Part shown: positions 7,684 to 35,120 of the stretch, piece after piece
Layout of the letters: each line of letters starts with the position of its first letter
How positions within the stretch are numbered: position 1 is the first letter of the stretch
Source of the DNA: Lytechinus variegatus
Lineage: Eukaryota; Echinodermata; Echinoidea; Temnopleuroida; Toxopneustidae
Assembly: GCF_018143015.1 (NCBI RefSeq)
Contig: NC_054749.1
Coordinates: 34,967,000-35,030,999 of the forward strand
Length of the DNA: 64,000 nucleotides
Direction: 5' to 3'
The notes under the pieces: model-generated
The model's input: the letters and a program-made list of their open reading frames with translations, nothing else
Told to the model about the DNA's origin: nothing
Database searches by the model: none
Position numbers and translations under genes: made by a program

Positions 7684-7892
7684 TTAACGAATCCCCGTGA
7701 TAAAGTTTTTCAGTTGTTCAATCTCTTCTTTACTGATCTGTAGTTCTCCATCAGCAAGCTTTCCCGCGAGAATAATGAGACCGGCCATTTTGAAAGTCAT
7801 CGGTTGTCTTGTTTGTAGTATCGCCCTACTCCCCTTTAATGCTCCTGAATTGAACTCAAAATCATGCACGATAACACACACGTGACCTTTCC
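7684..7892 (-). CDS. Gene A terminal exon: second half of module
   Basis: Acceptor CATTTTCAG|GG, then KGHVCVIVHDF through the last helix IEQLKNFITGI and a TAA stop. The exon has no tail beyond the domain, unlike the other copies. The intron to the previous exon is about 1.3 kb and contains a TAA microsatellite. Confidence 0.78.
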
Positions 7893-8764
7893 CTGAAAAT
7901 GAAGAAAAGGAAAGTTAGAACTTCTAGCACTTATATTCATTCAGAGCTTCCGAAAATGTGGTGATTAGAAAGGGGATCTTTTATCCCCGCTTTTATCATA
8001 GGCCAGGAGAAATTATGAATGATTTGGACAAAATGATATTCCAAAATGAAACACAATGAGTCACATGAAGACCTCTTTAATCGATGAGATGTTTCCAATT
8101 TACATCTCAATATCGGGATGGATAGGCTGTGTATCTCATCGTTTAACCTATTTTTAAACACGTAAAACATTTAATGGCCCGTATTTTGAAATCTGGTTTA
8201 ACTTAAACCCAGGTTTAAAGTTGTGGTTTAAGTATGGGAAGCCAAAAGTGTCAAAATTGTTATTAAGTTGCATGTTTCCTATGTTTACTGTGCTCTTTCC
8301 TGATTCATCGATGGAGAAGAAAATAATCTATTTATACTTCCTACCCAATGATTGAGCTGAGAGCTGAATGAGCTGAAGTATGATATCTCTTATGTTAGTG
8401 ATTATGTATCACTTGGCTGTCCATACTCAAACCACAACTTTAAACCCGACTTCAGTATACGGGCCATCGCTTTCAATTCCTATCATAATACCTATCCCTT
8501 TTTCAACAAAGTATAGAGGACCATTATGTTTGTTTGTTTTATTTAATTATATGACAATACGTATACCATGAAATGAGGTAAAGGTTAGCATACAGTAATA
8601 AATGGTTAAGGATAAAAAAGTAAAATACACTGCTAGTAGTCAGCTGCAATATCGTACTGCTGCAGGTCTTTCATCAAGCCAGTTTACTTGAATAATAATA
8701 ATTAAGTTGACCATCGAAAATAATAATAATAATAATAATGATAATAATAATAATAATAATAATG

Positions 8765-8798
<34 letters not shown>

Positions 8799-9636
8799 CA
8801 ATGTATGACCCACACCGCCCCTTTCCTGGTACAAATCAGCGATTTGGTTTCAATTGGCCCAGATGTACTTGAAATATTGAAAATAATTGAAAGTGGTGAC
8901 ATTCACATTCATTTCACACCGGGGTCTTTTTTAAGGGGTCTACTGGGGTCTTTAAGGGGTTGACCAAGGGGTCTTGCCCTTGGACCTTCTTTTTTTGTTT
9001 TGCTACAGTGTCAATTCTTTTTTTATATATATTTATTAGGCATAAAGTAATACAGAACTCATTTGTATGTAAAGTGTTTCCTGCAATGCTCGTATCCTTT
9101 GCCCCCCCCTCTCTCTTTACTTAATGGAACATTTTAACATGTGCACCACAGGGACTGCCTCCACCTATTTTCCAACCTGGTTCAATAATTACCAAAGACC
9201 GCATTGCAGTGCTTGAGGAACTCCTCGTAGATTGAGTTCTCGACATCAGTGATGGCCAATCCTCGGTTCTGCACAGAATGGCAGAGAATAACCGCATCCC
9301 TTCTGCTTGCCTCTGGTGGCAACCTGAACTCATCCAGTCCACCGTGAGGGAGTTCCTGCTCTTGGAGGATGCTCCTGCATGGATCACATTTCGGCTTCAA
9401 ATGCTCCTTGAGTCCTGAGATGGTACTGGGATCCATGGAGGTACAAAGATAGATGTGTGGCTTCCGGCGTGAGAAAGACCACAACCGACCAAACAACCAA
9501 GAAAGTGTTGTGCTCTCTTTATTTTGGACCTCGTGTGACTTTTCACTCTTTCCATCCGTGGGAGATTTTTTGGTACTCGTCTCGCAGGACGTGGGAAATT
9601 CTTCATCCCTCGGTGACAGCGATGGATGCATCGAAT
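7684..9636 (-). CDS. Gene A: single-module protein of an unrecognised alpha/beta domain family
   Basis: Two coding exons (9193-9636, then 7684-7892) encode one complete copy of the module also found twice each in genes B and C. Visible motifs are LCTS (strand 1), LPHGGLDEF, DAVILCHSVQNRGLAITDV, then after the intron VIVHDF, QPMTF and a final helix. Intron GT-AG signals are good and phase 1 (G|GG), identical in place to the other four copies. It is the most diverged copy: LPHGG replaces LPYNxID and a Ser/Lys-rich leader precedes the domain. The start is unsettled. An in-frame ATG lies at 9629-9631 beside the acceptor, or translation begins in an upstream exon such as 11590-11899. It is head-to-head with gene B. 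The role is unknown; the predicted product is cytosolic, with no signal peptide or membrane helix. Confidence 0.75.
8719..8796. repeat. (TAA)n microsatellite in gene A intron
   Basis: Near-perfect TAA repeats with occasional TGA units. Open frames through it are low-complexity artefacts. Confidence 0.9.
9193..9636 (-). CDS. Gene A exon: leader plus first half of module
   Basis: The minus-strand acceptor TTCTTTAG and donor TTTG|GTAATT bound 148 codons, phase 1 at both ends. The first 55 or so residues are a polar leader; the rest holds strand 1 (IYLCTS) to the helix after ITDV (YEEFLKHCNAVFG). Confidence 0.75.
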
Positions 9637-9878
9637 CTAAAGAATGACCGGATAAAATCACGTTGGCGTAACCAATTTATTAATCGTGAAAAGGCCGCCT
9701 ACAGTTCCACAAAAACTTCAATTGGCCCTCATAGTTTGCAGTCAAAACACATATACATGACCGGGTAAAACGGTACAACGGGTATTACGGATTGTAATAT
9801 CTAATTCTAATCAATGAACGAAAATAATTATAGTGAAATGAGAGTATAGTGTAGGTCTACAAGACTATCACTGGAGAG

Positions 9879-10426
9879 TTTAAAGGTCAAGTCCACCACA
9901 GAAAAATGTTGATTTGAATAAATCAAACTAGCATAACGCTGAAAATTTCATCAAAATCGGATGTAAAATAAAAAAAGTTATGGAACTTTAAAGTTTCGAT
10001 TATTTTTTCACAAAACAGTGATGTGCACAACTCAGTGACATGCAAATTTGCTTGAATTGTACAATATTTCATATTTTACAGATTTGACAATAAGGACCAA
10101 CTTCATTGAATCATATAATATTAAACAATGCCATCTATACTTGTTCAGGGAGGAATTAATCAGTTTCATTTGACAATGATGAGAAAATTATAATATTTCA
10201 TATTTCATGTAATGAAATATAAAAGAAATAGAGAGTGGATGACGTCATCATTCTCCTCATTTGCAGGATGTAAATAGAACTGTTTGTGAAATTAAGCGAA
10301 ACTTTAAAATGTCCTAACTTTCTTATTTTACATCCGATTTAGATGATTTTTTTAGCATTATGTTTTTTTTTATTTTTCTCTTTTTGTTCAAGTCAACTTT
10401 ATGTTGAGTTGGACTTGTCCTTTAAA
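9879..10426. mobile_element. MITE, TTTAAAGGTCAAGTCCACC family
   Basis: Starts TTTAAAGGTCAAGTCCACC and ends GAGTTGGACTTGTCCTTTAAA, an inverted pair. Inner arms carry AAAATTTCATCAAAATCGG and its complement-like TTTTACATCCGATTT. About 550 bp, non-coding, upstream of the gene A exon 9193-9636 and probably intronic. Confidence 0.85.
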
Positions 10427-10478
10427 TACGTCTAGAGAGATCAATGTCGGAAGTGATAATTAGTGTTCCGATACACTA

Positions 10479-11066
10479 TTAAAGGTTAAGTCCACCTCAA
10501 AAAAAATATTGATATGAATCAAGAGAGAAAAATCAAACAAGCATAATGCTGAAAATTTCATCAAAATCGCATGTAAGTTAAGAAATTTATGATGTTTTTA
10601 GGTTTCGCTTAATTTTCACAAAATAGATAGGGCCTATGCATATTCAAGTCGCATGCAAATGAGAGAATCGATGATGTCCCTCACTATTTCTTTTGTTTTC
10701 TTTAGTTTGAATTATGCAATATTTCAATTTTTACAGATTTGACTATAAGGACCAACTTGACCGAACAATAAAATGTTAAACAATGGTAATACCACATGTT
10801 TAGGGAGGAATAAAACTTTTTTTTTCACAGGACAATGAGGAGAGAAAATTATCATATTTCATATAATAAAGCATAAAGAATAGCGTTTGATATCATCAGT
10901 TACCTCGTTTGCATATACCGTCCGACGTGTGCATATAACTATGTTTTAAAAATAATTTAAACTTAAAAGAATTTTCTTATTTCACATCCGATTTTGATGA
11001 ATTTTTTATGGATTTTTCTCTTTTTATGCAAATAAACTTTTTGTTGGGGTGGACTTGTCCTTTAAA
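10479..11066. mobile_element. MITE, same family, second copy in the same interval
   Basis: Starts TTAAAGGTTAAGTCCACCTC and ends GGGGTGGACTTGTCCTTTAAA. It lies only about 50 bp from the previous copy in the same orientation. Together they fill most of the presumed first intron of gene A. Confidence 0.85.
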
Positions 11067-11169
11067 CAACACTTCTTTTATTTTACAAATGAAATCGTGT
11101 TTCTTTATGCTTCAATATTCATCCTATGCATTGTGAAACAGAGGTAAGTTGATGATCAAGCATATTTTG

Positions 11170-11320
11170 ATATGCTCCTCTCTTAGTAATAATAATAGCA
11201 GTGCATGCCTTTTTAAAGCGCCATGAGCACCGCAAGGTGGACCTGTGCGCAATGTAATTAAGTAGCCACCATTAATATCATTATCATTATTGTTAGTTAG
11301 ATAATAGTTATTCCAGAAAC
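11170..11320. mobile_element. possible SINE remnant
   Basis: Contains TTTTTAAAGCGCCATGAGCACC next to ATT/TAA-rich tracts, a layout seen at the 3' ends of the SINEs in this window (CAGCGCTTAGAAAC plus ATT tail at 14250-14403). The ends are unclear. Confidence 0.3.
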
Positions 11321-11589
11321 ACACATGCTCTTAAAAATTCTCGTAAATAATGGGTAATTGGTAAATAGATTTTTGGTTAGAATTTGACATAGCTGTTTAA
11401 ATCTTGTCGAAATCGATTATCAGCCTTACTTGCTCAAATGACAAAAGAGAAGGGGGGGGGGGTTAATCCCTAGGTATTATGTGATTCCCCTGACAAACAG
11501 GCAGAGGTTAACCTCCAATAAAAAATATATATATATATAAATAAATAAAAGGGAATAAGAGAAAAGAGAAGAAAAGACAAAAAAAAAAC

Positions 11590-11899
11590 CATGTACTGGT
11601 CTATCATCTTCCATTGATAGAGTGTGAAGGTCGAAATCTTCCTGTTGCAACATCGTTGATTTAAGCATGTTAAGACTTGGAAAAACTGGCGAGGAAGACT
11701 TTAAATGTGTACAAGATAAAGTTTCTAGTCCTTGTGGGTAGCTTTCTTGGACAGCAGACATCTTTGAAGAGCTTGAGAGAGTGTCATCAGTAAGAATTTC
11801 TTTCTTGGTAGGGTGACCGTCAGTTTTGTCCTCGGAACATTTCTGAGACCCAATATGCTTTTTAAAATGACGCTTCAATTGCTGCAGTTTCCGAGACAT
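11590..11899 (-). CDS. candidate 5' coding exon of gene A
   Basis: On the minus strand an ATG (11897-11899) opens about 100 codons of polar, Lys/Ser/Asp-rich sequence starting MSRKLQQLKRHFKKHIG. This fits the disordered leaders that precede the modules in gene B. An acceptor-like CCTTACAG lies about 80 nt upstream, so it could be a second exon carrying the start. The 3' splice site is not settled: GTACAT after CCA is phase 0, whereas the next gene A exon needs phase 1. It is either a real first coding exon with a donor I have not placed, or a chance frame. Confidence 0.35.
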
Positions 11900-11977
11900 G
11901 GAGTTGATAGCTCTTCAGCCACATAGAGGAAATTATGAGAGATGAAAATGATCGGCGTATAGCTGTGGTCAGTCTGT

Positions 11978-13435
11978 AAGGAACTGAATAACAAAGTCAG
12001 TTGTTTTTTCCTTCAAAATCTTTTTTTTATTTTTTTTTAAGCAAAATCAATGAATATTCGTACTTTCACCTTTCCTTTTATCGGTATATTTTGTTATTTA
12101 TTTTATCACATTTCCATATTCATATCCATATTGGTGCTCATACAATGTTTAATTCCTCTCTATGAATTTCATCAAACATTTATTTACTATTTTTTTTCAA
12201 ATATTTTTGTTAATCGCGAGTATTAAAAGCTAAAAATTGGACTCTAATTCCCAAGTATTTCTGTATCTCCCATTTTTAAATCTGGTATAACCTATAGCGA
12301 CTTTTAATTTGTCTGGAAAAAATGCCTGTGTTGAATGATACATTGGATATTATGCTCAACTTGAAATGAATTATTTGGGGGTCTTCAGAATGTAATTGAA
12401 ATAATATGGGGGCTCCTCAAAAGTCACATATTTTTTTCTTCACATATCAATTTCAGGGAGTATCATGACATTGATTTATAAGATCTTTAAGATTTTTATT
12501 CTGCAAGTCATAGTATAGAGATACTATTCATAAAGTTATGCATTTTACAACAGCAATAATCATGACATTAGCGCACTCCGCCTTATCGCGCACATCAAGT
12601 ACTAACACAAATTCCTACGAAAACTAATAAACATTATAAAACAATTCTGTCAGAAGTACAGAACCTGTTAATATGTAGTAAACTTAATAACTACTGTGTT
12701 AGCAAAAAGTGATGGCTTGTGCAGTTACGGTGAATTGGATAATGAAACTACTTACAGTCGTGCAGTCGTCAATGTTTAGCATTCCAAAATAAACGAGTTG
12801 CATGATGAATAGGCGACATGTTATGAACGAATATAATGCTGCTCGTTGATGATGATGATGTTGTTTTTGCTTATTCGACACGTATCATTCATCAGTAAAT
12901 ATTTCCTGACAATATTGGTCTCTTCCCAGGCGTTCGTTTATTATTAATGGTTATGTTAATTTCTGAATATTATTAAAAATCTATCACAGAATTGGATTTT
13001 GTAATAAACGATTTCGAAATTTTGGCTCTCTAGCTTTGCTCGCTCGAAATTTTTTGTAAATATTGATGTACCATATCTGGCTCCCTCATTTTTTTGCCGG
13101 GGGGGGGTCATCATGCCAATTGGATATCGGCCGGGTAGCCTAGTGTTTTTTTTTCTCAATTCTATGATTTTCAAAATTACTGAGAAGGAAAAACAATTAA
13201 ATGCGGATGAGTGAAAATATAAATCCAAACAGATTGCATAAACATATAATCATAAATCAATGCAATATAGACTTTGATGGACACGGGAGAGCATATGTAT
13301 CAAATGTTGATAGACTGATTTTTATATAGACAAATGTTCCTTTAATTGTTTCTGATTTTATTCATTTATTCATTCTTTTTACAATAATGATTGACTAACT
13401 TGATTGATCCTTTCACTGCTCACTTCGCAAGACGT
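11978..13435. other. A-B intergenic, no gene seen
   Basis: AT-rich sequence with short homopolymers and a GATGATGATG microsatellite near 12850. Open frames are short and unsupported. It would hold the 5' region of gene A. Confidence 0.45.
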
Positions 13436-13503
13436 TATAAAATCACTGCAGACTGGACAAAGACTAAGGCGCAATGGGTATTCCCACGTGACCTTTCATC
13501 TTC

Positions 13504-13514
13504 GGGGAATTCCC
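13504..13514. promoter_or_regulatory. perfect palindromic kappaB-type site between genes A and B
   Basis: The sequence is GGGGAATTCCC, containing the decamer GGGAATTCCC, the palindromic Rel/NF-kappaB consensus. It lies about 2 kb upstream of the first coding exon of gene B. It is about 60 bp from TTATAAAA (13435-13442), which reads TTTTATAA on the minus strand, so it could serve gene A, gene B or both. An identical decamer lies upstream of gene C. The binding role is inferred from the motif. Confidence 0.45.
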
Positions 13515-14110
13515 TTTATGTCATAGCTGTACGTCCAAACTGCGCAGAACACGACTGTGTTCGGCTATAGCTACACGTAAGCATAATACATCTACCGCAA
13601 TATTCCCGATTCTTCATGGAGATTGATGTGCGACAAAACACCGGTAGACGACGAAAATAATAGACTTCGATACTCAGCTGACCGAAGGTAATTGAACGGT
13701 GAGTTTTAAAAGATACACACTAAAAAAACAGGTTACATTAAATTTTTTTTGTTGTATGGCTATTTAAAAAAAAACCTTTAGTTAGGGCAGCCCAGGGAAT
13801 GTTAATGTATGCAAAATTTATTGCAGGAACTTCTCGGAATGTGATATTCAGAAAATAGTTTCAGATAAAAGAAATTGTTAATCGCTATTATAAGCATGTA
13901 TAGAAATAAGATTTGGCATATAATTTCTAAAAGATCCTTTCAGCAGCTTAACATGTCTGATGGTCCATACCCAGTTAAAGCTAATCCTTACAGCTTTAGG
14001 CATATGGTATCGTACGGTCACAGTCAAGGTTAAACTTCAGGCATATTGGTGAAATAGCAGGGGCACCTGATCATGAAAATAAAACAACACACAAAGTTCA
14101 TCTCACCGCA

Positions 14111-14405
14111 ACGCTAGCGTCCTTTGGCAATAAGGCGTTTATCTACATTTGGCATTCTCGACCCAGGCTTCGGGTTCCCGTCGAAAGGATTATGCTCGAT
14201 GCGCCCGCGATTAGGGTAGCCGTGCATAAGCGGGGGTAATAGTATGCAGCGCTTAGAAACATGTGTATTGCGCTATGTGAATGTTGCATCACATTATCAT
14301 TATTATTTATTATCATCACTATTATAATTATCATAATTATCGTTATTATTATCATTATTATTATTATTGTTGTTGTTGTTGTTATCATTATCATCATTAT
14401 TATAC
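14111..14405 (+). mobile_element. SINE with (ATT/ATC/GTT)n tail, copy 1
   Basis: The body begins CTAGCGTCCTTTGGCAATAAGG and includes CCCAGGCTTCGGGTTCCC, followed by CAGCGCTTAGAAACATGTG and a long ATT/ATC/GTT tail from about 14290. The copy at 51139-51515 shares TAGCGTCCTTTGGCAA, ACCCAGG, AGCGCTTAGA and a trinucleotide tail. Two dispersed copies with variable 3' trinucleotide tails indicate a SINE. Confidence 0.65.
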
Positions 14406-15766: not shown

Positions 15767-18700
15767 GTAAGCAAATTTGATAGCTTTCAATCCATTTTGT
15801 TCATGTTATTCTGATATCATCTGTATAATTGACATCTATTTTACATGTAGTAATATCATTTTTGCAGCATCGGTAGTAGTAGTATAGTCAAGTGATATTA
15901 CTAGTAATAACGGTAGTACCACTTATAGTCATGAAAGTAGTAGTATGCTGGTGGTGGTAAATTTAGTAAATAATATTATCATTACCCCGAGTAAAATAGC
16001 TTTATTAAACAAGTTAAAGGTGATATGTATTATATTGTTATGATATCAACCTAGCATCATCAACATGTAGGAAGTCATATCACCATTTATTGATTGATTC
16101 TATCATATTCGTCATAATCCGTTTCATAAAGCTGTTCGTAAGTTAAGAGCGACTTTATATTAAGAACGACTGGTGATCCTTTTCTTATGCGCTAAATCAT
16201 CGCCAATGAGTACACCATTTACAACAAGAAGGGATCGATCACCAGTCGTTCTTAAAGTCGCTCTTAACTTACGAACAGCTAAGTGAGTTCATGCGAAGCA
16301 ACAACATCAATGAACCCTGCTTTTTATAACTTAATTTTCAGATTTGAAATTACTGTAAAATATCATTACTCCATAGCACTCTCATCGCTTTATTCTATAC
16401 CCCCTTTATTTTCCCAAAATTCTAGAATTAATTTAAGACAATGTTTAATAATAATAACTTAACTCGTGGTATTTTACTGGCCTATATCTGGGTGTGTTTT
16501 TAATTTGACTACATTTTTTTAAGCTGAAAAAAATGTCACTGGCCCCAAGAATCTTGAGCTTATTCAGCAATATTTTAATTTTGCCCTGTTTTATCTTCAT
16601 TGATCAAAGGACCAGTTAATCAGCTTAAAGTCGAACCAATATCTCAATCTATCAAACGAGAGACTTCAGCATCTAATAGTATGACTCAAACACATTTACC
16701 CAGTCCGGGTGAGTTGCATCCAATCATAAATCCATTGGCAAGCTTCCACAGTATCTCTTATCTAGAATAATGAAATGTAATTTTAGTAGTCCTTCATTTT
16801 ATCAAAATCTTAAATTATTTGATGAAGATAATGACAGTGATGAATAATCATTCTGATTTTTTTTTATATTTTCAACGGCATATTTGCATGGCAATTGAAA
16901 TCAAAACAGGAAATATAATATGACACATAATAATCACTTTTTCATAAAAAACACACTTCTTTTTATTTGAGCTTTGTACCTAAAGTCATAACAACCATTT
17001 ATATCGGTCTCCTAGTAGGGTTGTAGACATTGAAAGTGGACCTGACAGAAAGTTAACTTTAACATTCAATATATTTTCTTTTCAGGGAATACAAAATCAG
17101 GATATACTTCTGGTCATGAAGGCGCTTGTGTTAAAGAATCCCTAGAAAAAGTTGGAGATGTTTCTGTGGATCACCGAAGAGTTAAATATTCGACTTCTGG
17201 ATCCCTTGTTGGTCCTGGTGAAGGGTCTCAGAAGATAGAAGAAGAGGAAAGTGGACATCAGCAGGAAGCAGAATCTGCCACTAATCCCGGTGTAGGATCT
17301 GAAGAGACTGATGGGAAGGAAAGTGAAACGTCACTGAGTACTGGATCAGCAGCCACTTCCGGTGAAAGCCCTCAACCCACAGATCCACCGGAAGATGAGC
17401 ACAGACAGAAAACTGAACCCAACGAGAGTTTCCGACAGACAAAAACAGAGGAAACGGGGCACTCACAGGAAATCAATACTGAGGAATATGGGACACACCT
17501 TAAATCCGAAACTTCCACCAATCCCGATGAGAGTACCCAACAGACTGGGACAGCTGGAAGTGCGACAAAACATAAATCTGGAACTTCTACCAATCCCGAT
17601 GAGAGTACCCAACAGACTGGGACAGCTGGAAGTGCGACAAAACATAAATCTGGAACTTCTACTAATCCCGATGAGAGTACCCAACAGACTGGGACAGCTG
17701 GAAGTGCGACAAAACATAAATCTGGAACTTCTACTAATCCCGATGAGAGTACCCAACAGACTGGGACAGCTGGAAGTGCGACAAAACATAAATCTGGAAC
17801 TTCTACCAATCCCCATGAGAGTACCCAACAGACTGGGACAGCTGGAAGTGCGACAAAACATAAATCTGGAACTTCTACTAATCCCGATGAGAGTACCCAA
17901 CAGACTGGGGCAGCTGGAAGTGCGACAAAACATAAATCTGGAACTTCTACTAATCCCGATGAGAGTACCCAACAGACTGGGACAGCTGGAAGTGCGACAA
18001 AACATAAATCTGGAACTTCTACCAATCCCGATGAGAGTACCCAACAGATTGGGACAGCTGGAAGTGCGACAAAACATAAATCTGGAACTTCTACCAATCC
18101 CGATGAGAGTACCCAACAGACTGGGACAGCTGGAAGTGCGACAAAACATAAATCTGGAACTTCTACTAATCCCGATGAGAGTACCCTACAGACTGGGGCA
18201 GCTGGAAGTGCGACAAAACATAAATCTGGAACTTCTACTAATCCCGATGAGAGTACCCAACAGATTGGGACAGCTGGAAGTGCGAAAAAACATAAATCTG
18301 GAACTTCTACCAATCCCGATGAGAGTACCCAACAGACTGGGACAGCTGGAAGTGCGACAAAACATAAATCTGGAACTTCTACCAATCCCGATGAGAGTAC
18401 CCAACAGACTGGGACAGCTGGAAGTGCGACAAAACATAAATCTGGAACTTCTACTAATCCCCATGAGAGTACCCAACAGACTGGGACAGCTGGAAGTGCG
18501 ACAAAACATAAATCTGGAACTTCTACTAATCCCGATGAGAGTACCCTACAGACTGGGGCAGCTGGAAGTGCGACAAAACATAAATCTGGAACTTCTACTA
18601 ATCCCGATGAGAGTACCCAACAGACTGGGACAGCTGGAAGTGCGACAAAACATAAATCTGGAACTTCTACCAATCCCGATGAGAGTACCCAACAGACTGG

Positions 18701-21700
18701 GACAGCTGGAAGTGCGACAAAACATAAATCTGGAACTTCTACTAATCCCGATGAGAGTACCCAACAGACTGGGACAGCTGGAAGTGCGACAAAACATAAA
18801 TCTGGAACTTCTACTAATCCCGATGAGAGTACCCAACAGACTGGGACAGCTGGAAGTGCGACAAAACATAAATCTGGAACTTCTACTAATCCCGATGAGA
18901 GTACCCAACAGACTGGGACAGCTGGAAGTGCGACAAAACATAAATCTGGAACTTCTACCAATCCCGATGAGAGTACCCAACAGACTGGGACAGCTGGAAG
19001 TGCGACAAAACATAAATCTGGAACTTCTACCAATCCCGATGAGAGTACCCAACAGACTGGGACAGGGGGAATTGGGTCCCAACAGAAACCAGAAACGCCT
19101 AGCAATCAGGGTAAGATCTTCATACAGGAAGCTTTGACCTGTCTCGTTAAGAGACCATGTGCATTATGCATGCAAACATGAAAGAATAACAGATTTTCCG
19201 TTTAATGTCTCAAAACTTGCAGTTTCCTGTTTTTTCATTTACCCACATATTAGTACGAATTTTTAGTCAGTTATAAGCACCAATACAGCGTTTTTGGTAT
19301 CTAGATATTTATTTAGGACTATGGTCAGTGAATTCAAGAGTGGTAACTTCACGCAAATTTTTACAAAATTCAGAGGTATCTGACTCATTCTGTCTTTGTT
19401 ATACTATTCAGTAGTGATTGATTTTGGGTTGTTTTAATAACCAATGCTCATCGTTTCAACAAAGACTTTGGCCAGAACAATAAAAAAATCTCTGATTCCT
19501 CAAAACCTTGTGTATGAATTGTGATTTTCTTGCAGTCTCGAAGAATCCATATACGAACCAATCTAGAGAACCAAGTTCAGGATCACCAGTCCATAGGGAC
19601 GGACGTATGACTACGTCTGAAGAAAAAATGAGAGAAGAAAACAGAGCCAATGAAGAAAAGATGAAAAATGAGGGCGCTGCTGCTAGTGAAGCCGGTGCTG
19701 CAAACGGTGCTATACAGCCTCACCAAGATCCAACAACGAAGGACACCGAACGTCCCGTATCTATCTCTATTTGTACATCGGCATATGAGAGCAATGTCCG
19801 AGGTCTGTTGACATTCTTGGAAGATATGAAAGATGTTATGCTCAAGGATGGTCATAACCTGATTAAAAACGTAAAGATCCATGAACTTCCATACAACAAC
19901 CTTGATGATTATGAATTCCCAGCAAACAAGCCGGTGGATGTTATGATACTTTGTCACTCTATCAACAATCGAAGGTTCGCCATCACAGATGTAATGGACG
20001 CCCTCTACGATAAATACCTTCCATACTGCCAACGGGTCATAGGTGATTACAGTCCAGTTATAGGGTACTGATAATTTTGTTAAAGAAAGAGAAATCCAAG
20101 TAATGGCTTAGGTCTTGCTAAAGATGTTCACATCCTATAAATTAACCTATGGTAAAATTATTCATTAACGACCATATTAATCAAATCCATATTAAGACTG
20201 CTAGTGATACCACCTGCTCTCGACAAATTTCAGATTAATGCCACCTCTCATGAAGAGAGTTTTTTTTAGTGTTTTATGAAGGGAATAATATTCACAGATC
20301 TTTTCATAAAAAACTACCAGATCTTTTGAAGGACATTTTCATGGAGGATGAGGGTTTGATACGGCCTCCAAATAAAACCCAACATTCTTTATTTGTCATG
20401 TTTGTAGCAATATTCGTTTCTTTCCATGACATGTATGCAATTAAGTGGTTAATATCCCTGAACGGTTTAAAGATGCCATTGTTGACAATGAAATTGCTTG
20501 AATGCGCTTGTATGCTTATTTGGCTGAATTAATAAACTCCGAAGTTTAATAATTTGAATATTTCATTGTGCTTTCATGAAATTCATAATCGGAATATACA
20601 GGAAAGGAGAAAATGGGAGTCATCGTCCATGACTTTGATAACATGAGAGAATCAGTTCAATCATCTCGAATGGGGTCATTTGAATACAAACAACCGACTG
20701 CCTTCAAGACTACTAGCCTTCAGATAACATGTGGACATATCGAGACGAATGAGCAGGTCAAGAAACAAATGCAACCAGCGGACCGGGACAAGCTGATTAA
20801 CTTCATCAAGGATGCGTCAAAATGGCCAGAAGACATGAAAACTGAACAACTTGATGACAGTCGATTTAATGCAAGGGGTAAAATTTCTAGCAAGTTATCA
20901 TGGTCATGTAAGTAAGCGATGCAGACAGCAAACTCAGATTGTTGTTTGATGTGCTAATTATTAGAATTCTGTATAATTAACATGTATTTGCCTATCAGCA
21001 CCCCTTTCATCGGATGACAAGTCAGATCAAAACATCAGAAGTATTCATATCTCTAGTAATTTTACCTCTTTTTATATCCCTAGTAATTTTTATCTCGTTT
21101 CATATCCCTAGTAATTTCATATCCTTTTTAAAATGTTTAATATTTATTTTTAGTTCTTCTGTCCTTCATCGCAGCTACAACATTCTTTTCTGTGCTTATA
21201 AATATTGCCAATTAATCTATTATCAAAACTTCAATTCCCCTTGATCATAATGTACATCTCATATCTCTCTTTTAAGCTTTTATGCGATCCATTTCGTCAG
21301 CAATGGGCAGTAAGGAGAGCACAGGGGAAGGATCCAGTGTGGACCCAATTAAAGACGAGGGATGGATTGATCTTGGTAAAGATCAGAATGGAAAGACGAA
21401 ACGTCCGGCAGATGATAACCATTCTCAAAGTTATGACGCTAAGCGTTCATGTGGGCCTCCTCGTAAGTAATTGTAATTTTCATGCTGCATCGGCTTTTTT
21501 GGTTGCGTGTAAACGCGATTAACTTGCATCGGCTCTCGGTGCAGAATCGGCAATTTTGCACCACCAAAGTAGTAGGTTCAGAACTGCGAGAAGATGCAGA
21601 ATCGGCTTTTTTCTACGTGTAAACAGAAAGCCGACTCTGCATCGGCAATTGATGTGCATTTCATTTACTTTACCATTATGACGTACCTGTAAGCACAAGG

Positions 21701-23665
21701 AGCCAGCGTTGACGTATATGGTTGGTGCGCGGATCATTCAGGTTTTTGCCACGCGAGCCAATTCTGCACCGCGAGCTGTGACAGCGTGTAAACGCGCTGT
21801 GCAAGTTAAACCAAAAGCCGATTCTGCATCGGCTTTTTGGTTCTGAACCAAAAGCCGATCTGTAAACACGGTAAAAGTTGAGTAAACCTTGTTCCATTGC
21901 AACGGCAAAATAACATCTGAGTGTTTAGGAAATAAGCTTATCGCCTGAGTGGAATTATATCAACTTTGTAAATAATTGTTTGTACCCATCAGTATACATT
22001 CAGCTGTTTAATTACAGAATTAAAAGAATACATTAATTCAGTTCTTGAAGACGAAAAAATAATGACAATATCGTTCCATGAAGTATTCAAGGGTTGGCGA
22101 ATATAAACCGTATTTCTCTATTTATAAAAAATCGTTAGATCAGATGCAACTGAATTTATTCACTGTATTTGATGCTCGCTTCCAGAGAGTAATCGAATTT
22201 CATAAAAAAATGTATGAATATTATTCTTTTCCTCTAGAAGTAGGCAGCAAATATGAAATTAATATCGATTTTACTTTCAATCGTGGACGATATGGTCTTT
22301 TTGGTCTGTCCTTTCACCGATTGAATTGAGCTCCGAATGTATCCGTCAATAAAACGTGAAATATTGAGCACTTTAATTCAAATATATATTGGTACTATAT
22401 ATCTCATTAGTTTGATCGCTCATACTCGATTAATTTCCTATTAGAAGGTGTGTCGAAGACAGGCACTTCCAGTGGTTCTCACCAGCCTGCTCAGACCAGA
22501 CCAGATAAAAGGAAGATTGCATCCACCAAAGGACAAATGCAAGACACAAGCAACGCATTGGCAAAGACACATGCTCAAGGTTCACAGCCGAAGGCACAAC
22601 AATCAGGCGGAGCAGCGCCCCGTCCTATCTCAATTTCGGTCTGTTCATCCGCCTACGAGCACAACGTTCAAGGATTCATCACCAAGCTCAATGAATTGAA
22701 AACAAGTCAGCCTCATATTATTTCTGATGTCCGTTTTCGCCCACTACCATACAACATCATCGATGAGTTCAGGTTTCCTCCAGAAGACCCTGTTGATGTG
22801 ATGGTCCTCTGCCATTCAGTTAATAACAGAGGATTTTCAATCACCGATGTCGTGAATGCTCTCTACGAAAAATATCTTCAGTATTGCCATGATGTGATTG
22901 GTAAGCTTTGAGGTTGGGGAATAGGCCTTACGATTATACTTGCTTCTAAACTAATGTTCATGCTTACTCGGCCCGGATAATGATTCGGACTAACACATGG
23001 GATCCCGACCAATTCTGTCGGAGGACCCGATTTTAGGGCCTAAAATTGCTGCACCAATGAAAAAGTAAATTTCAACAATCTTGGATGGTTTAAGTACTAG
23101 AATCACCTGTAAAATGTTCCACCAGCCCCGATTCTTGATATAAGCAATTACGCTTTAATTTCATATTTGTACTAGGTACTTATTTCATTTCCATACGATT
23201 ATGAAAATGGTATATGGGGATACCTTTCCTTCGTCAATGGTAAAGGAAAATGCAGGAATCTGATACAACTTCTGCAAAATATCGGGTCATACGTCCCTCG
23301 TATATAACTCTATCCCCTTAATTCATGCCTGCTTTCGGGATATAATGATAAGTCACAATCTTTTTTTATTCTTCATCACTCCAGGTAAAAGGAAGGTGGC
23401 AGTAGTTGTTCATGACTTTAGTGACTGCAAGCCAACGATCCTTGAGACAAGGATGAACGCATTCAAGAGGTCACAACCTTTAACATTTGACCTTGCTGAC
23501 ACAGTAATGGTATGTGGTAAACTGGATGACAAAGGCAATGTGGAAATCAGAGATGAGGATTGGACAAAACTAATAAGATTCTTGGAACAGGCAAGGTTTG
23601 AACCAAAAGAGAACAATGCCGAAACACAAGGAACTGCAAAAAGCTGGTTGGGTTCATTCTGGTAA
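15586..23665 (+). CDS. Gene B: repeat-stalk protein with two alpha/beta modules (about 1346 aa)
   Basis: Eight coding exons join in frame, every intron phase 1 with GT-AG ends: 15586-15766, 16610-16708, 17086-19110, 19536-20042, 20602-20907, 21277-21462, 22445-22900 and 23385-23665. Order: a polar Lys/Glu-rich leader (about aa 1-235); a 22-copy 24-residue Ser/Thr-rich repeat (about 236-752); a Glu/Ala-rich linker; module 1 (about 842-1010; ICTSAYE, LPYNNLD, VDVMILCHSINNRRFAITDV, VIVHDF, QPTAF); a linker (exon 6 and the start of exon 7); module 2 (about 1162-1330; VCSSAYE, LPYNIID, VMVLCHSVNNRGFSITDV, VVVHDF, QPLTF); and a short tail ending SWLGSFW. No signal peptide, membrane helix or coiled coil is obvious. 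Function is unknown. The module may bind a nucleotide or be a signalling domain, but that is inference from predicted fold only. The start was chosen as the first in-frame ATG after an acceptor at 15550-15551. Confidence 0.85.
16130..16280. mobile_element. hairpin MITE in gene B intron 1
   Basis: The left arm AGCTGTTCGTAAGTTAAGAG and right arm CTCTTAACTTACGAACAGCT are perfect inverted repeats. Pairing continues inward (GAACGACTGGTGATC with GATCACCAGTCGTTC) for more than 50 bp with a loop of about 40 bp. Confidence 0.85.
16610..16708 (+). CDS. Gene B coding exon 2
   Basis: A 33-codon exon (GPVNQLKVEPISQS onward) between ATCAAAG and CCGG|GTGAGT, phase 1 at both ends. It joins its neighbours in frame. 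It is short and polar, with no motif. Confidence 0.6.
17086..19110 (+). CDS. Gene B coding exon 3 (repeat array exon)
   Basis: Acceptor CTTTTCAG|GG and donor CAATCAGG|GTAAG bound 675 codons, phase 1 at both ends. About 140 residues of Glu/Ser/Thr-rich sequence lead into the 22-unit array. After the last degenerate unit the exon ends within PETPSNQG. All three codon positions of the array stay open in other frames because the unit is 72 nt, which explains the long antisense and shifted frames here. Confidence 0.9.
17511..19062 (+). repeat. 72-bp coding tandem repeat, 22 units
   Basis: Unit TSTNPDESTQQTGTAGSATKHKSG in pieces of 24 residues: 21 full units plus a last one that drifts to GTGGIGSQQKPE. 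Variation is sparse: PHES in units 5 and 14; GAAG in 6, 10 and 15; QQIG in 8 and 11; TLQTGAAG in 10 and 15; AKKH in 11. ACC/ACT codon variants are also seen. Such homogeneity points to recent expansion or gene conversion and predicts length polymorphism. Confidence 0.95.
19536..20042 (+). CDS. Gene B coding exon 4: first half of module 1
   Basis: Acceptor TTTTCTTGCAG, donor CATAG|GTGATT, phase 1 at both ends. About 73 residues of Glu/Lys- then Ala/Gly-rich linker precede PVSISICTSAYE. The half ends with the helix YDKYLPYCQRVIG. Confidence 0.88.
20602..20907 (+). CDS. Gene B coding exon 5: second half of module 1
   Basis: Acceptor ATATACAG|GA gives GKEKMGVIVHDF. The exon continues through QPTAFK, a strand LQITCG and the helix DKLINFIKDAS, then a short tail to donor TCAT|GTAAGT (phase 1). 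Confidence 0.85.
21277..21462 (+). CDS. Gene B coding exon 6 (linker)
   Basis: 62 codons, phase 1 at both ends (TTTTAAG|CT to CCTC|GTAAGT). The sequence is polar (GSKESTGEG, GWIDLGKD, KTKRPADD) with no domain. The counterpart in gene C is absent or merged into the next exon. Confidence 0.75.
21487..21870. mobile_element. inverted-repeat element in gene B intron
   Basis: Blocks reading GCATCGGCTTTTTGGTT, GTGTAAACGCG and AAAAGCCGATTCTGC recur in both orientations across about 385 bp. Right-hand CCAAAAGCCGAT pairs with left-hand ATCGGCTTTTTTGG. It is non-coding and most likely a MITE within intron 6. Confidence 0.65.
22445..22900 (+). CDS. Gene B coding exon 7: linker plus first half of module 2
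   Basis: Acceptor TTCCTATTAG, donor GATTG|GTAAGC, phase 1 at both ends. About 60 polar Gln/Ser/Lys-rich residues, then RPISISVCSSAYE, LPYNIIDEF, VDVMVLCHSVNNRGFSITDV and YEKYLQYCHDVIG. Confidence 0.88.
23385..23665 (+). CDS. Gene B terminal exon: second half of module 2
   Basis: Acceptor CATCACTCCAG|GT gives GKRKVAVVVHDF, QPLTFD, TVMVCGKLDDKG and the helix LIRFLEQARFEP, then a short tail and TAA stop. Confidence 0.88.
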
Positions 23666-28628: not shown

Positions 28629-28631
28629 CGC

Positions 28632-29281: not shown

Positions 29282-29292
29282 GGGAATTCCCC
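29282..29292. promoter_or_regulatory. perfect palindromic kappaB-type site upstream of gene C
   Basis: GGGAATTCCCC, containing the same decamer as at 13505-13514. It sits about 45 bp 5' of the TATA box at 29336. This is a plausible Rel/NF-kappaB site by motif and position, not by data. Confidence 0.55.
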
Positions 29293-29335
29293 GTTTCATG
29301 AAACTCGTCCATTTTCATGTGACACGTATACATGG

Positions 29336-29392
29336 TATATAAAGACCATAATCTTCTAGAATTTATACACGTAGTTCCGTTGCAGTTAGCAG
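29336..29392 (+). promoter_or_regulatory. putative TATA box and short first noncoding exon of gene C
   Basis: TATATAAAG at 29336-29344 is a strong TATA box. A start about 30 bp on (near 29367) would give a short leader ending AGCAG|GTGAAT at 29392, a good splice donor. The next strong acceptor before the gene C ATG is TTTTTTGTTTCAG at 30636. This promoter assignment is inference. Confidence 0.4.
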
Positions 29393-30046
29393 GTGAATAT
29401 GAATTATTTCATTATTATTAATATTTAAAGACATGATAAGCAGATACAAACATGACGAATGCTTACTAAAGTTTTACGTTGCCATGGCTTGAAATGAGTT
29501 TTAGTTAAGACATGATAAATTTCTTTCAATTCGCACTCGATTATGGTATGACTTAATATGTAGGACCTTATTTTATATTTTATTGTTGATGGTGCAATGT
29601 TTTATTATGTTATTGGATAAAAACACAAAACGCTTTCTTCATTGTTTATGGGTCTATACTGCAGTTAATGCTATCTCAAGTGATATTCATGTCAATAGAA
29701 CTAGAATCTATACAATTTATACAAAGGTCGATATCAAATCTTCCTCCTTGTGGGACTGTAATCCTACTTTCCGTTTATCTTTGACCTTTATTCTCTTTGC
29801 AACTTATGAACCATATTTTTTATATTCATTGACAATCTTACCTAAGAATTGCATGCCTGTGGTTTAAAAATGAGCATGTCCACTTGTCAATATGGGGGGG
29901 GGGTAATTGTGCTCAGTGGCTACGCCTTAAATTTACACGAGAGTTAACTGATAAGGAAATATTATCTTTCTAAAGCGATCTATATACCTGCAAAACTTTG
30001 ATTCAATCCGGAATAAAGAGTGTAGAAAGAGAAGGCTTGCATCTAA

Positions 30047-30654
30047 TTAAAGGGATACTCCGGGCTGAAAATGTTCATCTTTTAATTAAATAGAATGATA
30101 TTCACAGAACAAAATACTGAAAATTTCATCAAAATCGGATAACAAATAACGAAGTTATCGAATTTTAAAGTTTAGCATTATTTTGTGAAAATAGTATGCA
30201 CGTCATCATGAATATTCATTAGGTGGGCTTATGATGTCACATCCCCACTTTCCCTTTTCTTATGTTATTACATGAAATCATTATAGTTTCATTTGTCATA
30301 CATGAGTGAATAATGTGTTTCCTCTATTGTAATAATCTATGCAGCAATTAATATCCAATGCACTAATCAATTGTCAATCCAGTTTTTTTTCAGTTCTTGG
30401 TATGAAATAATGAATTCACCCAATTATATATAATAAAATATAAAAAGAACGAGTGGGTGTGACATCATCAATTTGCTCATTGAATCATCATGAAGACTTG
30501 CCTAGAACTGTTTCACGGGAACACTGCAAATCTTTAAAATGCCATAACTTTTCTAATCGTTGTCCGATTTTGATCAAATTTTCAGTGTTTGTTTATCTGT
30601 TTTTTCTACATCTGTTTATACCATTTTTTGTTTCAGCTTGGAGCATCTCTTTAA
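30047..30654. mobile_element. MITE just upstream of gene C
   Basis: Left end TTAAAGGGATACTCC and right end GGAGCATCTCTTTAA are inverted repeats (13 of 15 matching). Inner text carries AAAATTTCATCAAAATCGG and TCCGATTTTGATCAAATTTTC in opposite arms. About 608 bp with TTAA at both ends. It ends 85 bp before the gene C start codon. Confidence 0.8.
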
Positions 30655-30739
30655 CCAAAAAACAAGATCAATCACGTTAGGTCATTACTCCGAAGCAGAA
30701 TATCAGCAACCTTAACCTGAACTCCAAGGGAGAGACATC

Positions 30740-31040
30740 ATGGCAGGATCTAATAACCAACGTCAAGTCTCCGTCACTGTCTGTACATCCTCATACGAGT
30801 ATAACATCAAAGGTCTCATGGATCAACTGAAGAATCTCCAGACGCACCCACACCAGGTCATCAAGAAGGTGTCCTATCATCAGCTCCCATACAACAACAT
30901 AGACAAGCATAAATTCATCAAGGAACAACACGTCGACGTGATGATCCTTTGTCACTCTATCACGAATAGAAGGCTTGCCATCACCGACGTACCTGATGCT
31001 TGCTATGATAAGTTCCTCCCGAATTGCACGGAGCTTCTAG
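30740..31040 (+). CDS. Gene C coding exon 1: first half of module 1
   Basis: MAGSNNQRQVSVTVCTSSYE onward; the domain starts almost at the initiator Met. Ends with the helix YDKFLPNCTELLG at CTAG|GTGAGT, phase 1. Confidence 0.88.
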
Positions 31041-34000
31041 GTGAGTCATGTCATGGACATTTTCGTGTTTAACTCGTTGCCTACTGGAACCAGGAATAGT
31101 CCCTGTACTAAGAAGAAAGGAGTTACATAATTCAGCACTCGATAATAAAATTCATTACTTGAACCCAGTGGTCCCTGTACAGAATGTAGAAGAAAATTCT
31201 GTCAATTATATGTTATCATAACGATATAGGATGAATTTGGTAGTATACTTTGATTAGTCTATTTTTGTGTAACCACTTTAAAGAAGCATGTGAAGTATTT
31301 TAACTGATTTGATCTGGGGTTTTCGCTTTTGACATGTATTACCTGTTTTGCTGGTATCCTCTTTTAAAGATAATCGACTGGTTAACTGCACAATATCCTG
31401 GCAAACATGGCAAAGGACAGAACTTAAGATTAATGGAAATGTTTATGATCCGAAAATTTTGACCAACATCACACGGCGACACAAAATGTAATCCGACAAA
31501 TGCTATTACCTTATTCCCACACTGCAAAAACTCCGGTGTTGATTTAACACCAGCCGGGAATCTATGTATGTCCACACCAGAGAAGTATTGAAACAACATC
31601 AGTTTAGAATCAAACCGATGCTGTTTTGATACTAATTGGTGTTGTATAAACACCTATCCGGTGTTAGACCAAAACGAAACTGGGGTTGTTTAACACTTCT
31701 CTGGTGTGGACATTCGAGGCTGGTGTTAAATCAACACCAGAGTTTTTGCAGTGCAAATGACCTATTCTAACATTGGTTGTTTATTCGGTTTGTCGGTGTG
31801 ACTCTAGTGACTGTAGCATCTTTTCAATCATTTATCATTCTCTTAACATTTTCTTTCAGGAAAAGAGAAGATTGTGGTGATTGCTCATGACTTCATGGAT
31901 ATGAGTGAGAAAGAATATCAGGCGCGGATGGTGACTCTTCGACATCAACAACCAAAGACGTTTAGAAACTCAGGTCTCGTCATGATATCTGGAAAGCTAG
32001 ATGAAGGGAAAAGACTCCGAGGCCAAGATGAAGCACAACTACTCGAGTTCTTGAAGATGGCGACCCAACAGCCTGAGAAAAGAGAGCAAGGCTTCATTTC
32101 AAGCATTAAAAGTATGTTTAAAAATACATGTATGAAAAGATGTTTCCATTTGCGAAAAAAATAAACATTAATGGTTTGCTAAGATCATGAAGATTCGGGA
32201 ACGGGAAGTATTATTTTTGATGTTTTTAATTACTTTCTTTGAATTATAAATGATATTCTATGAATTATAACCATGAAATTTCGTGATGATTGAATGGAAA
32301 GAATCAATCTTTTCCGGAGCTTTGTGGCTGTATATATGGTTAAATATATTTTATTGAAAAGGAGTTGATGTTTCATACAATGAATATTATTTGGTCAAAA
32401 ACACAATAAAGGTTTCACATCAGAGCCCAAAGTAGAAGGAGTTTCATGTCCACGTACTCAAGATCAACATTTAAAAACTGTTTCGAAATCACACTATATG
32501 CAGTGGTGTAAGGGCTATACCCCCCGCGTCTTTTCGGAACTTGTGAGATAACATTTCTTTTCTTCGAGGTAATTGGACAACCAAAATTATAACATTTGAT
32601 ATAACCGATTTTGGTTATGTTTCAGAAAATCTTTCATCGATGGATTCCTCTCACCTATGTCGTAAACGCCCTGCCCAACCAGGAGTTGTGCAATATCGGG
32701 GACAGGAACATCCTGTCACAATCAATCAACCCGCCAAACTTCCCCCACGTAGTCACGGACAAGGCGAGCAAAGTCCCTATCCTATGCAACAGTCCCAGCG
32801 ACATCCATCACCAAGTTCTGTGCAGCAACCGGGACATCTCACACAATATTCCAAGCAACCAGTACAACAGCCTGTAGGAAAGCATAATGTTGGGCAGCAT
32901 CATGGTCAGACTGCAGAACATGATCATGGTCAGATTGCAGGACCACGTCTGCCACAAACTCCTGCACAGCAAACTGGAATAAATCCTGCCCAACTGTCCG
33001 GAAAACAAGAACAAAATCCTGCAGAATGTTCGCCACACCAACATGGGAAAACCATTGGACAGCGCTCTTCACAGCTTCCTTCGGGACATCAACCACACGA
33101 TCCACCACAATACACTCCTCAGCAACCGCCTCAATATCATCCACAGCAACATGCAGCATCATCACACCAGAGACCAGTGCCACAATCCCGTCAAATCAAT
33201 GTTTCAATCTGTACTTCTTCGGATGAGTTCAACATCGGGGGATTGGTTGCCCGGTTAAACGAGCTGAAAACCGATAGTGCACCCTTTATTGCCGACATCC
33301 GATTCCGGAGACTACCATACAACGATATCGATTCGTTCAAGTTTCCTTCCAACGACCCTGTTGATGTGATGGTACTCTGTCATTCAGTTAACAACAGAGG
33401 ATTTGAAATCACAGACGTCACGAATTCCATCTACGACAAGTTTCTGAAGTACTGCAACAAAGAGATTGGTAAGTCCCTTCTGGAAAGAATACAGTATCCC
33501 ACAGTGGCAGTATATTTACAGTGTGGAACGCAATGTGAAAGACTTTCACACTGTTAAATTTGAGCATTTCAACATATTCAAATTATCGACTATGTAGATT
33601 TAGATTTATTTCCGTTCAACATTTTTTTTCAAAATATAATCAAAGTAACAATACATGTTCAATAATCGATAATACAGACATGACAGACAAATCTTTGAAA
33701 TTTCGTAACAAATGTTGAATATAAATTAAACAAAACTACAATTTGTTGCAGAAATTTTATCAATGAAAAGAAAGTAGAAATGAACGGAGTAACTTGCCAA
33801 GAAAAGCAAAAGCCTGTAGAGAAGGCAAGCCCCTAAACTTAGTTTCAATACTGATTATAAACAAACTATATATACAACTATATACAAAACTCGAGACAAA
33901 CACAGAAGACAAACTTAAAACAAGTAATCCACAAATATCAAAATAAAACGAATAAGCGAAAAAAACAAGATAAAGTAGAATGTAGACACGCTGTGAACAG

Positions 34001-35120
34001 TCACACTGTCGAGGTGTCCACAGTAGTGTGAAAATATCTTCACATTGTTAAATTTTAACATTTCAACGGTTTGAATAATATTTCCACTATGTAAACGCAG
34101 TGTGATCACAACTGTGTGACCGTGTGTTCTTTTCAGCAGGGGTAAACTGACTGGACTCGTATCAAATATTCAACTCTAAATATCTTGAATATTAAACATT
34201 CAAATCTATGTATCAGAATAGGCCTATTTTGAAGGGGAGGGGGCACAAAACTATCTAACCATGACGATATGTATTTTATAAATTGAATTTAAATGAATTA
34301 TACTAGGTGTATTATAGTTACAAGGCCCAGAATTCTCAATCTTGCTCCTTTCTTACCCCTCATTACCCCCCAATACTTGACTCATATAGGTGGTCCCCCA
34401 CCCCATGGGGCGCTTATGGTTTAGACAAATAGTTATTAAAGTCCGAATTGGGGGTAACTTGCAGTGGGGACAGTCGATTCCATGCATATTGGTTTCATTA
34501 TATGATCTTTCACAGTAATTTTAGAAAAGCAATGTTCAAGATAAGGTTACCCAGGGTAAACCTAAATTAAAAAATACATTTATTTTCTGTAATGTTTCGA
34601 ACGACTTTGTAGATACAGGCGGTATAAAAAGGTTGCTATTACTATTGTGTTTGGTGTCACCTAGTAGGTGAAGAGCACCTGATAAATCTTTTTTTTTTTC
34701 ATCAACGAAGACAAAAATATTTATTTCGTCAGAAGCATAGCTAGATTTATTTCACTCATGATTATTTTCGTTGGGTGTAGACCCGAAAATCAAGCATGTC
34801 CCCGGTGTTTTGTCTATGTTTTCTCTTGTTCTCTAGGGAAGGAGAAGTTGGCTTTAATCGTCCATGACATTAGTGGATGGAGTCCAGGAGTCGCTCGTAA
34901 CAGGATGGACTACTTTCAGGAAACGCAACCTTCAACGTTCAAGTTTGCCCATACCGTACTCATCTGCGGAAATCTTCAAAAGTCCGAAGATTTGGAGATT
35001 TCAAACGTGGACATGATAAAACTGCTCTCCTTCTTTGAAACTGCAAGTTTAGAACCAAGAAAGAAGGCTTCAACTTTTGACATCATTAAAAGAAAATGCC
35101 TCTCTCCTAAAGAATGCTAG
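30740..35120 (+). CDS. Gene C: two alpha/beta modules joined by a Gln/His/Pro linker (about 559 aa)
   Basis: Four coding exons (30740-31040, 31860-32111, 32626-33468, 34837-35120) join in frame with phase-1 GT-AG introns. Start ATG in good context (ACATCATGG). Module 1 spans about aa 9-170: VCTSSYE, LPYNNID, VDVMILCHSITNRRLAITDV, VIAHDF, QPKTF. Linker about 175-370, rich in Gln, His and Pro. Module 2 about 373-545: ICTSSDE, LPYNDID, VMVLCHSVNNRGFEITDV, LIVHDI, QPSTF. It lacks the leader and repeat array of gene B but shares its module order. Module 1 is closest to B module 1 and module 2 to B module 2. No signal peptide or membrane helix. Function unknown; a TATA/kappaB promoter upstream suggests inducible expression. 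Confidence 0.87.
31520..31753. mobile_element. GGTGTT-rich MITE in gene C intron 1
   Basis: Left end CACTGCAAAAACTCCGGTGTT and right end AACACCAGAGTTTTTGCAGTG are inverted repeats; many GGTGTT/AACACC half-sites lie inside. It is related in end sequence (CACTG.AAAAACT) to the 239-bp elements at 39973 and 48045. Confidence 0.8.
31860..32111 (+). CDS. Gene C coding exon 2: second half of module 1
   Basis: Acceptor TTTTCTTTCAG|GA gives GKEKIVVIAHDF, QPKTFR, LVMISGKLDEG and the helix LLEFLKMATQ. Donor AAAA|GTATGT, phase 1. Confidence 0.83.
32626..33468 (+). CDS. Gene C coding exon 3: linker plus first half of module 2
   Basis: Acceptor TTATGTTTCAG, donor GATTG|GTAAGT, phase 1 at both ends, 281 codons. 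The first 188 or so residues are a low-complexity linker with HHGQTAEHDHGQIAG and QYTPQQPPQYHPQQHA. Then INVSICTSSDE to YDKFLKYCNKEIG. Confidence 0.87.
34837..35120 (+). CDS. Gene C terminal exon: second half of module 2
   Basis: Acceptor TTGTTCTCTAG|GG gives GKEKLALIVHDI, QPSTFK, TVLICGNLQ and the helix LLSFFETASLEP, then a basic tail and TAG. The VHDF motif reads VHDI here. Confidence 0.86.

What the first reader, a model, noticed from the sequence alone, without database searches (positions are those of the whole stretch)
7684..35120. Cluster of genes built from an unrecognised ~165-residue alpha/beta module
Seen: five copies of one module in three adjacent genes, with shared motifs CTS/CSS after strand 1, LPYNxID, VDVMxLCHSxNNR, ITDV, VHDF and QPxTF. 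Hydrophobic strands alternate with amphipathic helices in the pattern of a five-strand doubly wound fold. Inference: a lineage-expanded Rossmann/flavodoxin-like domain. The nearly invariant CHSxNNR and HD residues sit at predicted strand ends, where such folds put ligand or catalytic residues. I cannot match it to TIR, caspase, STING or any named family from memory.
Basis: partly seen in the sequence, partly recalled or inferred. Interest (0 to 1): 0.9.

Follow-up and report, generated by a model that had tools for sequence, protein, structure and literature searches.

The report
New sea-urchin protein domain family
A stretch of sea-urchin chromosome carries three genes built from an uncatalogued protein building block that was found in several sea urchins and, surprisingly, in one bacterium that lives in marine animals, which hints at a signalling or defence role.

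Summary
Five copies of one ~165-residue module lie in three genes at 7684-35120, each split by a phase-1 intron at the same glycine. The window is Lytechinus variegatus. Pfam, NCBIfam and PDB sequence searches give no family. Every named protein hit is a sea urchin except one bacterial protein, in Endozoicomonas elysicola; 1 of 37 genomes of its family has it. AlphaFold2 models of an urchin and the bacterial protein are five-strand alpha/beta domains. TIR, response-regulator and Rag-GTPase folds tie as nearest; no tested family matches by profile. CHS and HD stand at the ends of predicted strands 3 and 4. Some relatives carry a PAP2 lipid phosphatase or hydrophobic segments. Function is inferred: an intracellular ligand-binding or enzymatic signalling domain, perhaps in host-microbe conflict. 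The tree does not resolve the direction of transfer, and two protein searches missed the known bacterial member, so absence elsewhere is weak evidence.

The parts
7684..7892 (-). m1, 3' exon: second half of module 1 with stop (LOC121422902)
   Evidence: splice join; 100% to P0004
9193..9637 (-). m1, middle exon: first half of module 1
11591..11653 (-). m1 gene, first coding exon
   Evidence: tblastn of P0004, 100% over residues 1-21
17501..19065 (+). 72-base tandem repeat, 21.7 copies, in an open frame (17046-19181) upstream of m2; possible low-complexity N-terminal exon of the m2-m3 gene
   Evidence: a phase-1 donor (GT at 19111) and acceptors (exon start 17086 or 17101) would fit; not confirmed by a transcript
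19536..20042 (+). m2, exon with first half of module 2
20602..20907 (+). m2, exon with second half of module 2
21277..21462 (+). linker exon between modules 2 and 3
   Evidence: P0043 residues 345-407 match here at 38%, E 2.6e-4; in-frame join
22448..22900 (+). m3, exon with first half of module 3
   Evidence: 85% to L. pictus P0001
23385..23665 (+). m3, exon with second half of module 3 and stop
   Evidence: 88% to P0001
30740..31040 (+). m4, start codon and first half of module 4 (LOC121423376)
   Evidence: 99% to P0048
31860..32111 (+). m4, second half of module 4
   Evidence: P0048; donor read by eye
32626..33468 (+). m5, Q/P/H-rich linker and first half of module 5
   Evidence: P0048; acceptor read by eye
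34837..35120 (+). m5, second half of module 5 and stop
   Evidence: 99% to P0048

Best explanation
The module is an uncatalogued intracellular alpha/beta domain family of sea urchins. It folds as a five-stranded, doubly wound sheet in the TIR / response-regulator / flavodoxin class (predicted). The loops after the strands (CTS, LPYND, LCHSxxNR, HDF, CGxL) form a polar cleft that binds, and probably turns over, a small ligand (inferred). Urchins use it in at least three settings: soluble two-module proteins with long low-complexity linkers, as in this window; module plus one or more hydrophobic segments; and module on a PAP2 lipid phosphatase (shown by sequence). By analogy with TIR domains I propose that it is a signalling domain acting at or near membranes in response to microbes or stress (inferred). 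E. elysicola carries an intronless copy with a hydrophobic C-terminal helix (shown and predicted), most simply captured from an animal and used on its host (inferred; direction not shown).
For: Family: 32 of 952 candidates, E down to 2.8e-77; 11 of 109; 59 of 3306, none weaker than E 1.5e-19 at a limit of 0.1; no Pfam/NCBIfam/PDB family. Fold: pLDDT 85.9, pTM 0.80; pLDDT 80.5, pTM 0.66, with a helix between strands 2 and 3. Cleft: strand C-terminal zones are more conserved (2.86 bits) than N-terminal zones (1.71) or the rest (2.02); 6 of 164 circular shifts reach this; the zones (35 of 165 positions) hold 18 of the 45 most conserved positions. C85, H86, S87, N90, R91, T96, D97, Y103, H124, D125, F126 and Q145 (P0001 numbering) are kept in the bacterial protein, whose highest identity to an urchin module is 42-44%. 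Architectures. Bacterial copy; gene GC 38% against 51% for a nearby 598-codon gene.
Against: No biochemical, expression or localisation data were found (0 papers hold any of six locus names). Best structural matches are ties among unrelated functions. The conservation signal is moderate, and the run ITDV-Y-FL in the following helix, outside the strand-end zones, is as conserved as the loops. The bacterial protein lacks two residues conserved above 90% (C29 to A, G159 to N), and one Diadema module, the second of P0050, lacks HD, so the site is not absolutely fixed. D97 is N in some urchin copies (ITNV). The immune role rests on the restricted distribution, the number of paralogues and the bacterial copy alone.
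Confidence: 0.45

Rival explanations
1. A non-catalytic interaction or scaffold domain (a TIR-adaptor-like or pseudo-GTPase-like module) whose conserved loops hold partners together; two-module proteins act as linkers.
Against: Polar residues (C, H, S, N, R, H, D) are kept in a bacterial protein of at most 42-44% identity, more typical of a ligand or active site than of a binding face.
Confidence: 0.3
2. A divergent member of the TIR superfamily, acting on NAD or as a TIR adaptor.
Confidence: 0.12
3. A membrane-lipid enzyme that works in series with PAP2-type lipid phosphatases.
For: Three proteins (L. variegatus, L. pictus, S. purpuratus) join PAP2 to the module (E 3e-13, 1.1e-12, 1.1e-13); 37 of 60 proteins have a hydrophobic segment outside the module, these three included.
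Against: P0004 and P0048, the window's m1 and m4+m5 proteins, have no such segment; only 3 of the hits carry a PAP2 label; no lipase or phosphatase family matches the module itself.
Confidence: 0.1
4. A caspase-like (peptidase C14) domain, active or dead, suggested by the run hhLCHS...GKxKhxVIVHDF.
For: His at the end of strand 3 and a GK-K motif before strand 4 recall caspases (motif recalled, not from a call); caspase-1 appears at Foldseek rank 43, prob 0.21.
Against: No conserved Cys at the strand-4 end (HDF there); profile comparison with 30 C14 domains gives probability 0.4%.
Confidence: 0.03

Closest known systems
TIR domain (bacterial TIR-STING, plant RRS1/RPS4, BCAP cryptic TIR)
   Different: No sequence or profile relation found; no conserved Glu; LPYND in place of the TIR BB-loop motif (motif recalled).
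Response-regulator receiver domain (CheY, CpaE)
   Different: C-H-S stands at the end of strand 3 where receivers have the phospho-acceptor Asp (Asp position recalled); profile probability 0.2%.
Flavodoxin-like fold
   Same: Five-strand doubly wound sheet; 6puq is the top Foldseek row for the urchin model (E 1.0e-3, prob 1.00, TMt 0.48).
   Different: Profile probability 0.5% against 16 Flavodoxin_1 domains; no Pfam flavodoxin hit.
Host-derived genes in Endozoicomonadaceae (IAPs of Ca. Endonucleobacter; PMC11521996, passages read)
   Same: An animal-type protein in an animal-associated member of the same bacterial family.
   Different: There the direction was argued from a tree; here the tree does not place the bacterial copy, and no sea-slug or fish relative was among the named hits.

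Membership tests
TIR domain superfamily | Match to a TIR sequence profile | tested here: not met
   Pfam scans of the 5 window modules, of 5 module proteins and of the 30 members of A4: no TIR; hhalign probability 4.8% over 20 columns
TIR domain superfamily | Five-strand TIR-like fold | tested here: inconclusive
TIR domain superfamily | Catalytic Glu in the helix after strand 3 (enzymatic TIRs; recalled) | tested here: not met
   No Glu among the 45 most conserved positions of 74 modules
Response-regulator receiver | Phospho-acceptor Asp at the end of strand 3 (recalled) | tested here: not met
   C85-H86-S87 there, each at weighted frequency 1.00 in 74 modules; profile probability 0.2%
Flavodoxin | Flavodoxin profile match | tested here: not met
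   hhalign 0.5%
Flavodoxin | FMN binding | not testable with these tools
   needs protein
Caspase (peptidase C14) | Catalytic His after strand 3 and Cys after strand 4 (recalled) | tested here: not met
   His present, conserved Cys absent: HDF at the strand-4 end; hhalign 0.4%
New echinoid domain family (this report) | Shared module with LPYN, LCHSxxNR, ITDV, HDF and Q motifs across paralogues and genera | tested here: met
   m1 and a few members vary in single motifs
New echinoid domain family (this report) | Intron at the same G|K in all urchin members | tested here: inconclusive
   5 of 5 window copies; of 8 proteins with only partial matches, 7 (taken to be unspliced) lose the match at module position 94-100 and one, P0026, has an insertion; P0070-P0075 not examined; gene structures of other loci not read

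The most novel reading that the evidence does not exclude
A previously undescribed animal innate-immune signalling domain, working like a TIR domain but of separate sequence ancestry, diversified in sea urchins as soluble tandem, membrane-tethered and lipid-phosphatase-fused forms, and captured by an animal-associated Endozoicomonas as a membrane-inserted protein that interferes with the host pathway.
Probability: 0.22. Interest if true: 0.85.

Novelty: new variant of a known kind. Interest (0 to 1): 0.62.

Why it matters
Sea urchins are a standard model with a large innate immune repertoire (recalled), yet this domain family has no Pfam or NCBIfam model and nearly all its records are called 'uncharacterized'. 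It has clear candidate active-site residues, so its chemistry can be tested directly. A related gene in an animal-associated bacterium would, if acquired from an animal, add to the few reported animal-to-bacterium transfers (described as rarely observed in PMC11521996) and point to a host process worth interfering with.

Tried and rejected
Caspase idea: dropped (no conserved Cys at strand 4; hhalign 0.4%). TIR, receiver and flavodoxin membership: not supported at sequence level; fold matches are ties. Foldseek against predicted viral proteins gave two rows under 1e-3, one unnamed (H9NBS1) and one uncharacterised protein of Pseudomonas phage PaBG (prob 1.00, TMt 0.53); not followed up. PDB sequence search: only rows at E 0.71-0.9. 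Weak Pfam rows (DNA_pol_B_thumb 19.9 bits against cut-off 25, DUFs, BatA) are below cut-offs. NCBIfam: one row for the bacterial protein, far below cut-off. PADLOC: PD-T4-6 matches 2 of 30 members, best E 8.2e-5; not followed up. No confirmed relatives in viral contigs (73 and 82 pattern hits, none confirmed), and none in plasmids (query P0033) or phages (query P0012).

Donor question: the 39-row tree puts the bacterial copy beside P0035 (90/56), but the 72-row tree does not, and AU tests reject neither of two placements tried (p 0.446 and 0.452). So the tree says nothing on direction.

Sensitivity caveat: the protein searches did not list P0033, a true member that should lie within their length ranges, so members in other phyla could have been missed too. 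The prokaryote scan used two peptide patterns; 11 stretches matched and 1 was confirmed. Paper searches showed no description of the family in their listings; only open-licence papers are held.

The whole-genome census of L. variegatus could not be run (tool busy, 14 times).
Full report
WHERE THE WINDOW IS FROM. The window lies in an 869.6-Mb assembly of 33 contigs, at C10:34967000-35030999. A database protein, P0004 = LOC121422902 of Lytechinus variegatus, matches the window at 100% over three exons, and P0048 = LOC121423376 of the same species matches m4+m5. So it is sea-urchin DNA.

THE OBSERVATION. Each is coded by two exons, split by a phase-1 GT-AG intron at the same glycine, just before predicted strand 4. 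Pairwise identity is 33-52% over 153-175 columns (85-194 bits), against 23.1 bits for the best of 200 shuffled comparisons. The copies form three genes: m1 (minus strand, one module); m2+m3 (577-residue open frame after in-frame joining; two-module S. purpuratus counterpart P0043); and m4+m5 (559 aa, P0048; S. purpuratus P0049 and L. pictus P0047 have the same two-module layout). Upstream of m2 an open frame contains a 72-base repeat of 21.7 copies; splice sites would allow it to be an N-terminal exon, which is not proved. Diadema two-module proteins P0045 and P0046 also start with a different serine/threonine-rich repeat.

WHO ELSE HAS IT. Three protein searches: (query: the five modules) 32 of 952 candidates, 24 named, all echinoids, 8 unnamed; (query: the bacterial protein) 11 of 109, being the bacterial protein itself and 10 echinoid proteins; (query: 20 diverse members) 59 of 3306, 50 named, all echinoids, 9 unnamed, with no hit weaker than 1.5e-19. 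The genera are Lytechinus, Strongylocentrotus and Diadema. Eight named L. variegatus loci appear among the hits, besides the m2-m3 gene, for which no record was listed. These searches depend on shared five-letter words; both failed to list the bacterial member, so absence elsewhere is weak evidence.

THE BACTERIAL COPY. A scan of one genome for each of 84,980 prokaryote species, with two peptide patterns, gave 11 matching stretches, of which one encodes a relative: Endozoicomonas elysicola DSM 22380, in a 5.57-Mb contig, 41% identity, E 1e-25. The gene is one uninterrupted 259-codon frame between other long bacterial frames; 1 of 37 genomes of the family has it, and this is that genome. Its GC is 38%, against 51% for a nearby 598-codon gene (a transporter by my reading) and 40-42% for two neighbouring large frames without a Pfam match. 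It has a C-terminal predicted 27-residue helix (228-254), hydrophobic but under my 1.6 cut-off (KD 1.39). According to PMC12491435 (passages read) E. [quoted passage not shown] PMC9966300 (passages read) reports Endozoicomonas among the spine bacteria of Caribbean sea urchins, chiefly Tripneustes and Echinometra. PMC11521996 (passages read) argues that Ca. Endonucleobacter took apoptosis inhibitors from its host. Direction here is open: the bacterial sequence has a long branch, sits beside P0035 in the 39-row tree (90/56) but at an unresolved base in the 72-row tree, and AU tests reject neither of two placements tried. That urchins hold many diverged paralogues, with introns in the five seen here, while one bacterium holds one copy makes animal-to-bacterium transfer the simpler reading; an unsampled third source is not excluded.

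CANDIDATE SITE. In 74 aligned modules (Henikoff weights) the residues from one before to five after each strand end average 2.86 bits, N-terminal zones 1.71, the rest 2.02; 6 of 164 circular shifts do as well, and these zones (35 of 165 positions) hold 18 of the 45 most conserved positions. This is moderate evidence: the ITDV-Y-FL run in the next helix is as conserved. C85, H86, S87, V98 and Y103 are at about 100%, T96 99%, R91 95%, D125 94%, N90 92%, H124 90% (P0001 numbering). The bacterial protein keeps all of these but has A for C29 and N for G159. One Diadema second module has lost HD, which suggests occasional decay of the site.

ARCHITECTURES. Of 60 proteins with a full module (75 held), 37 have a hydrophobic 19-residue segment (KD 1.6 or more) outside it, the three PAP2 proteins included. 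Some are a module followed by one terminal segment (P0007, P0012), some continue into threonine/proline-rich tails (P0009, P0010, P0014). Three (L. variegatus, L. pictus, S. purpuratus) have PAP2 before the module. m1 of the window groups with these PAP2-borne modules (100/91). The two-module proteins of the window type (P0043, P0045-P0049) have no such segment, nor has m1's P0004.

MECHANISM. Shown: family, modular use, shared intron in the window copies, kept polar residues. Predicted: the alpha/beta fold. Inferred: a ligand-binding or catalytic cleft; cytosolic placement (the C terminus of PAP2 lipid phosphatases faces the cytosol, recalled); a role in signalling against microbes. The scaffold rival is close behind.

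NOVELTY. A new domain family of a common fold class, with no described relative in the libraries searched and none evident in the listings of open-licence papers (passages were read in three papers only).

Noticed in passing
17501-19065: A 72-base tandem repeat (21.7 copies, 97% matches) keeps a frame open in an exon-like stretch before m2; Diadema relatives P0045 and P0046 carry a different repeat in the same place.
   Followed up: partly
41405-41605: A stretch that matches one of the fetched proteins outside the module cluster; probably the part of Diadema protein P0042 between its two modules, which reads like a retrotransposon remnant (both by my reading, not checked).
   Followed up: no
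L001:5935-9606 and L001:21-1529: Two large E. elysicola reading frames (1223 and 502 aa) near the module gene have no Pfam or NCBIfam match and a GC of 40-42%; possibly an accessory island.
   Followed up: partly
window m1 (7684-9637): m1 groups with modules joined to PAP2 lipid phosphatase (100/91), apart from m2-m5, so the window holds two old branches of the family.
   Followed up: partly
P0050 residues 193-357: A Diadema second module has lost the HD pair and the N of the NR motif while keeping the module length, as a decayed or pseudo-active copy would.
   Followed up: no
55206-55817: An open frame with a sub-threshold BatA match (23.4 bits, cut-off 25.9), probably a hydrophobic stretch.
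   Followed up: no
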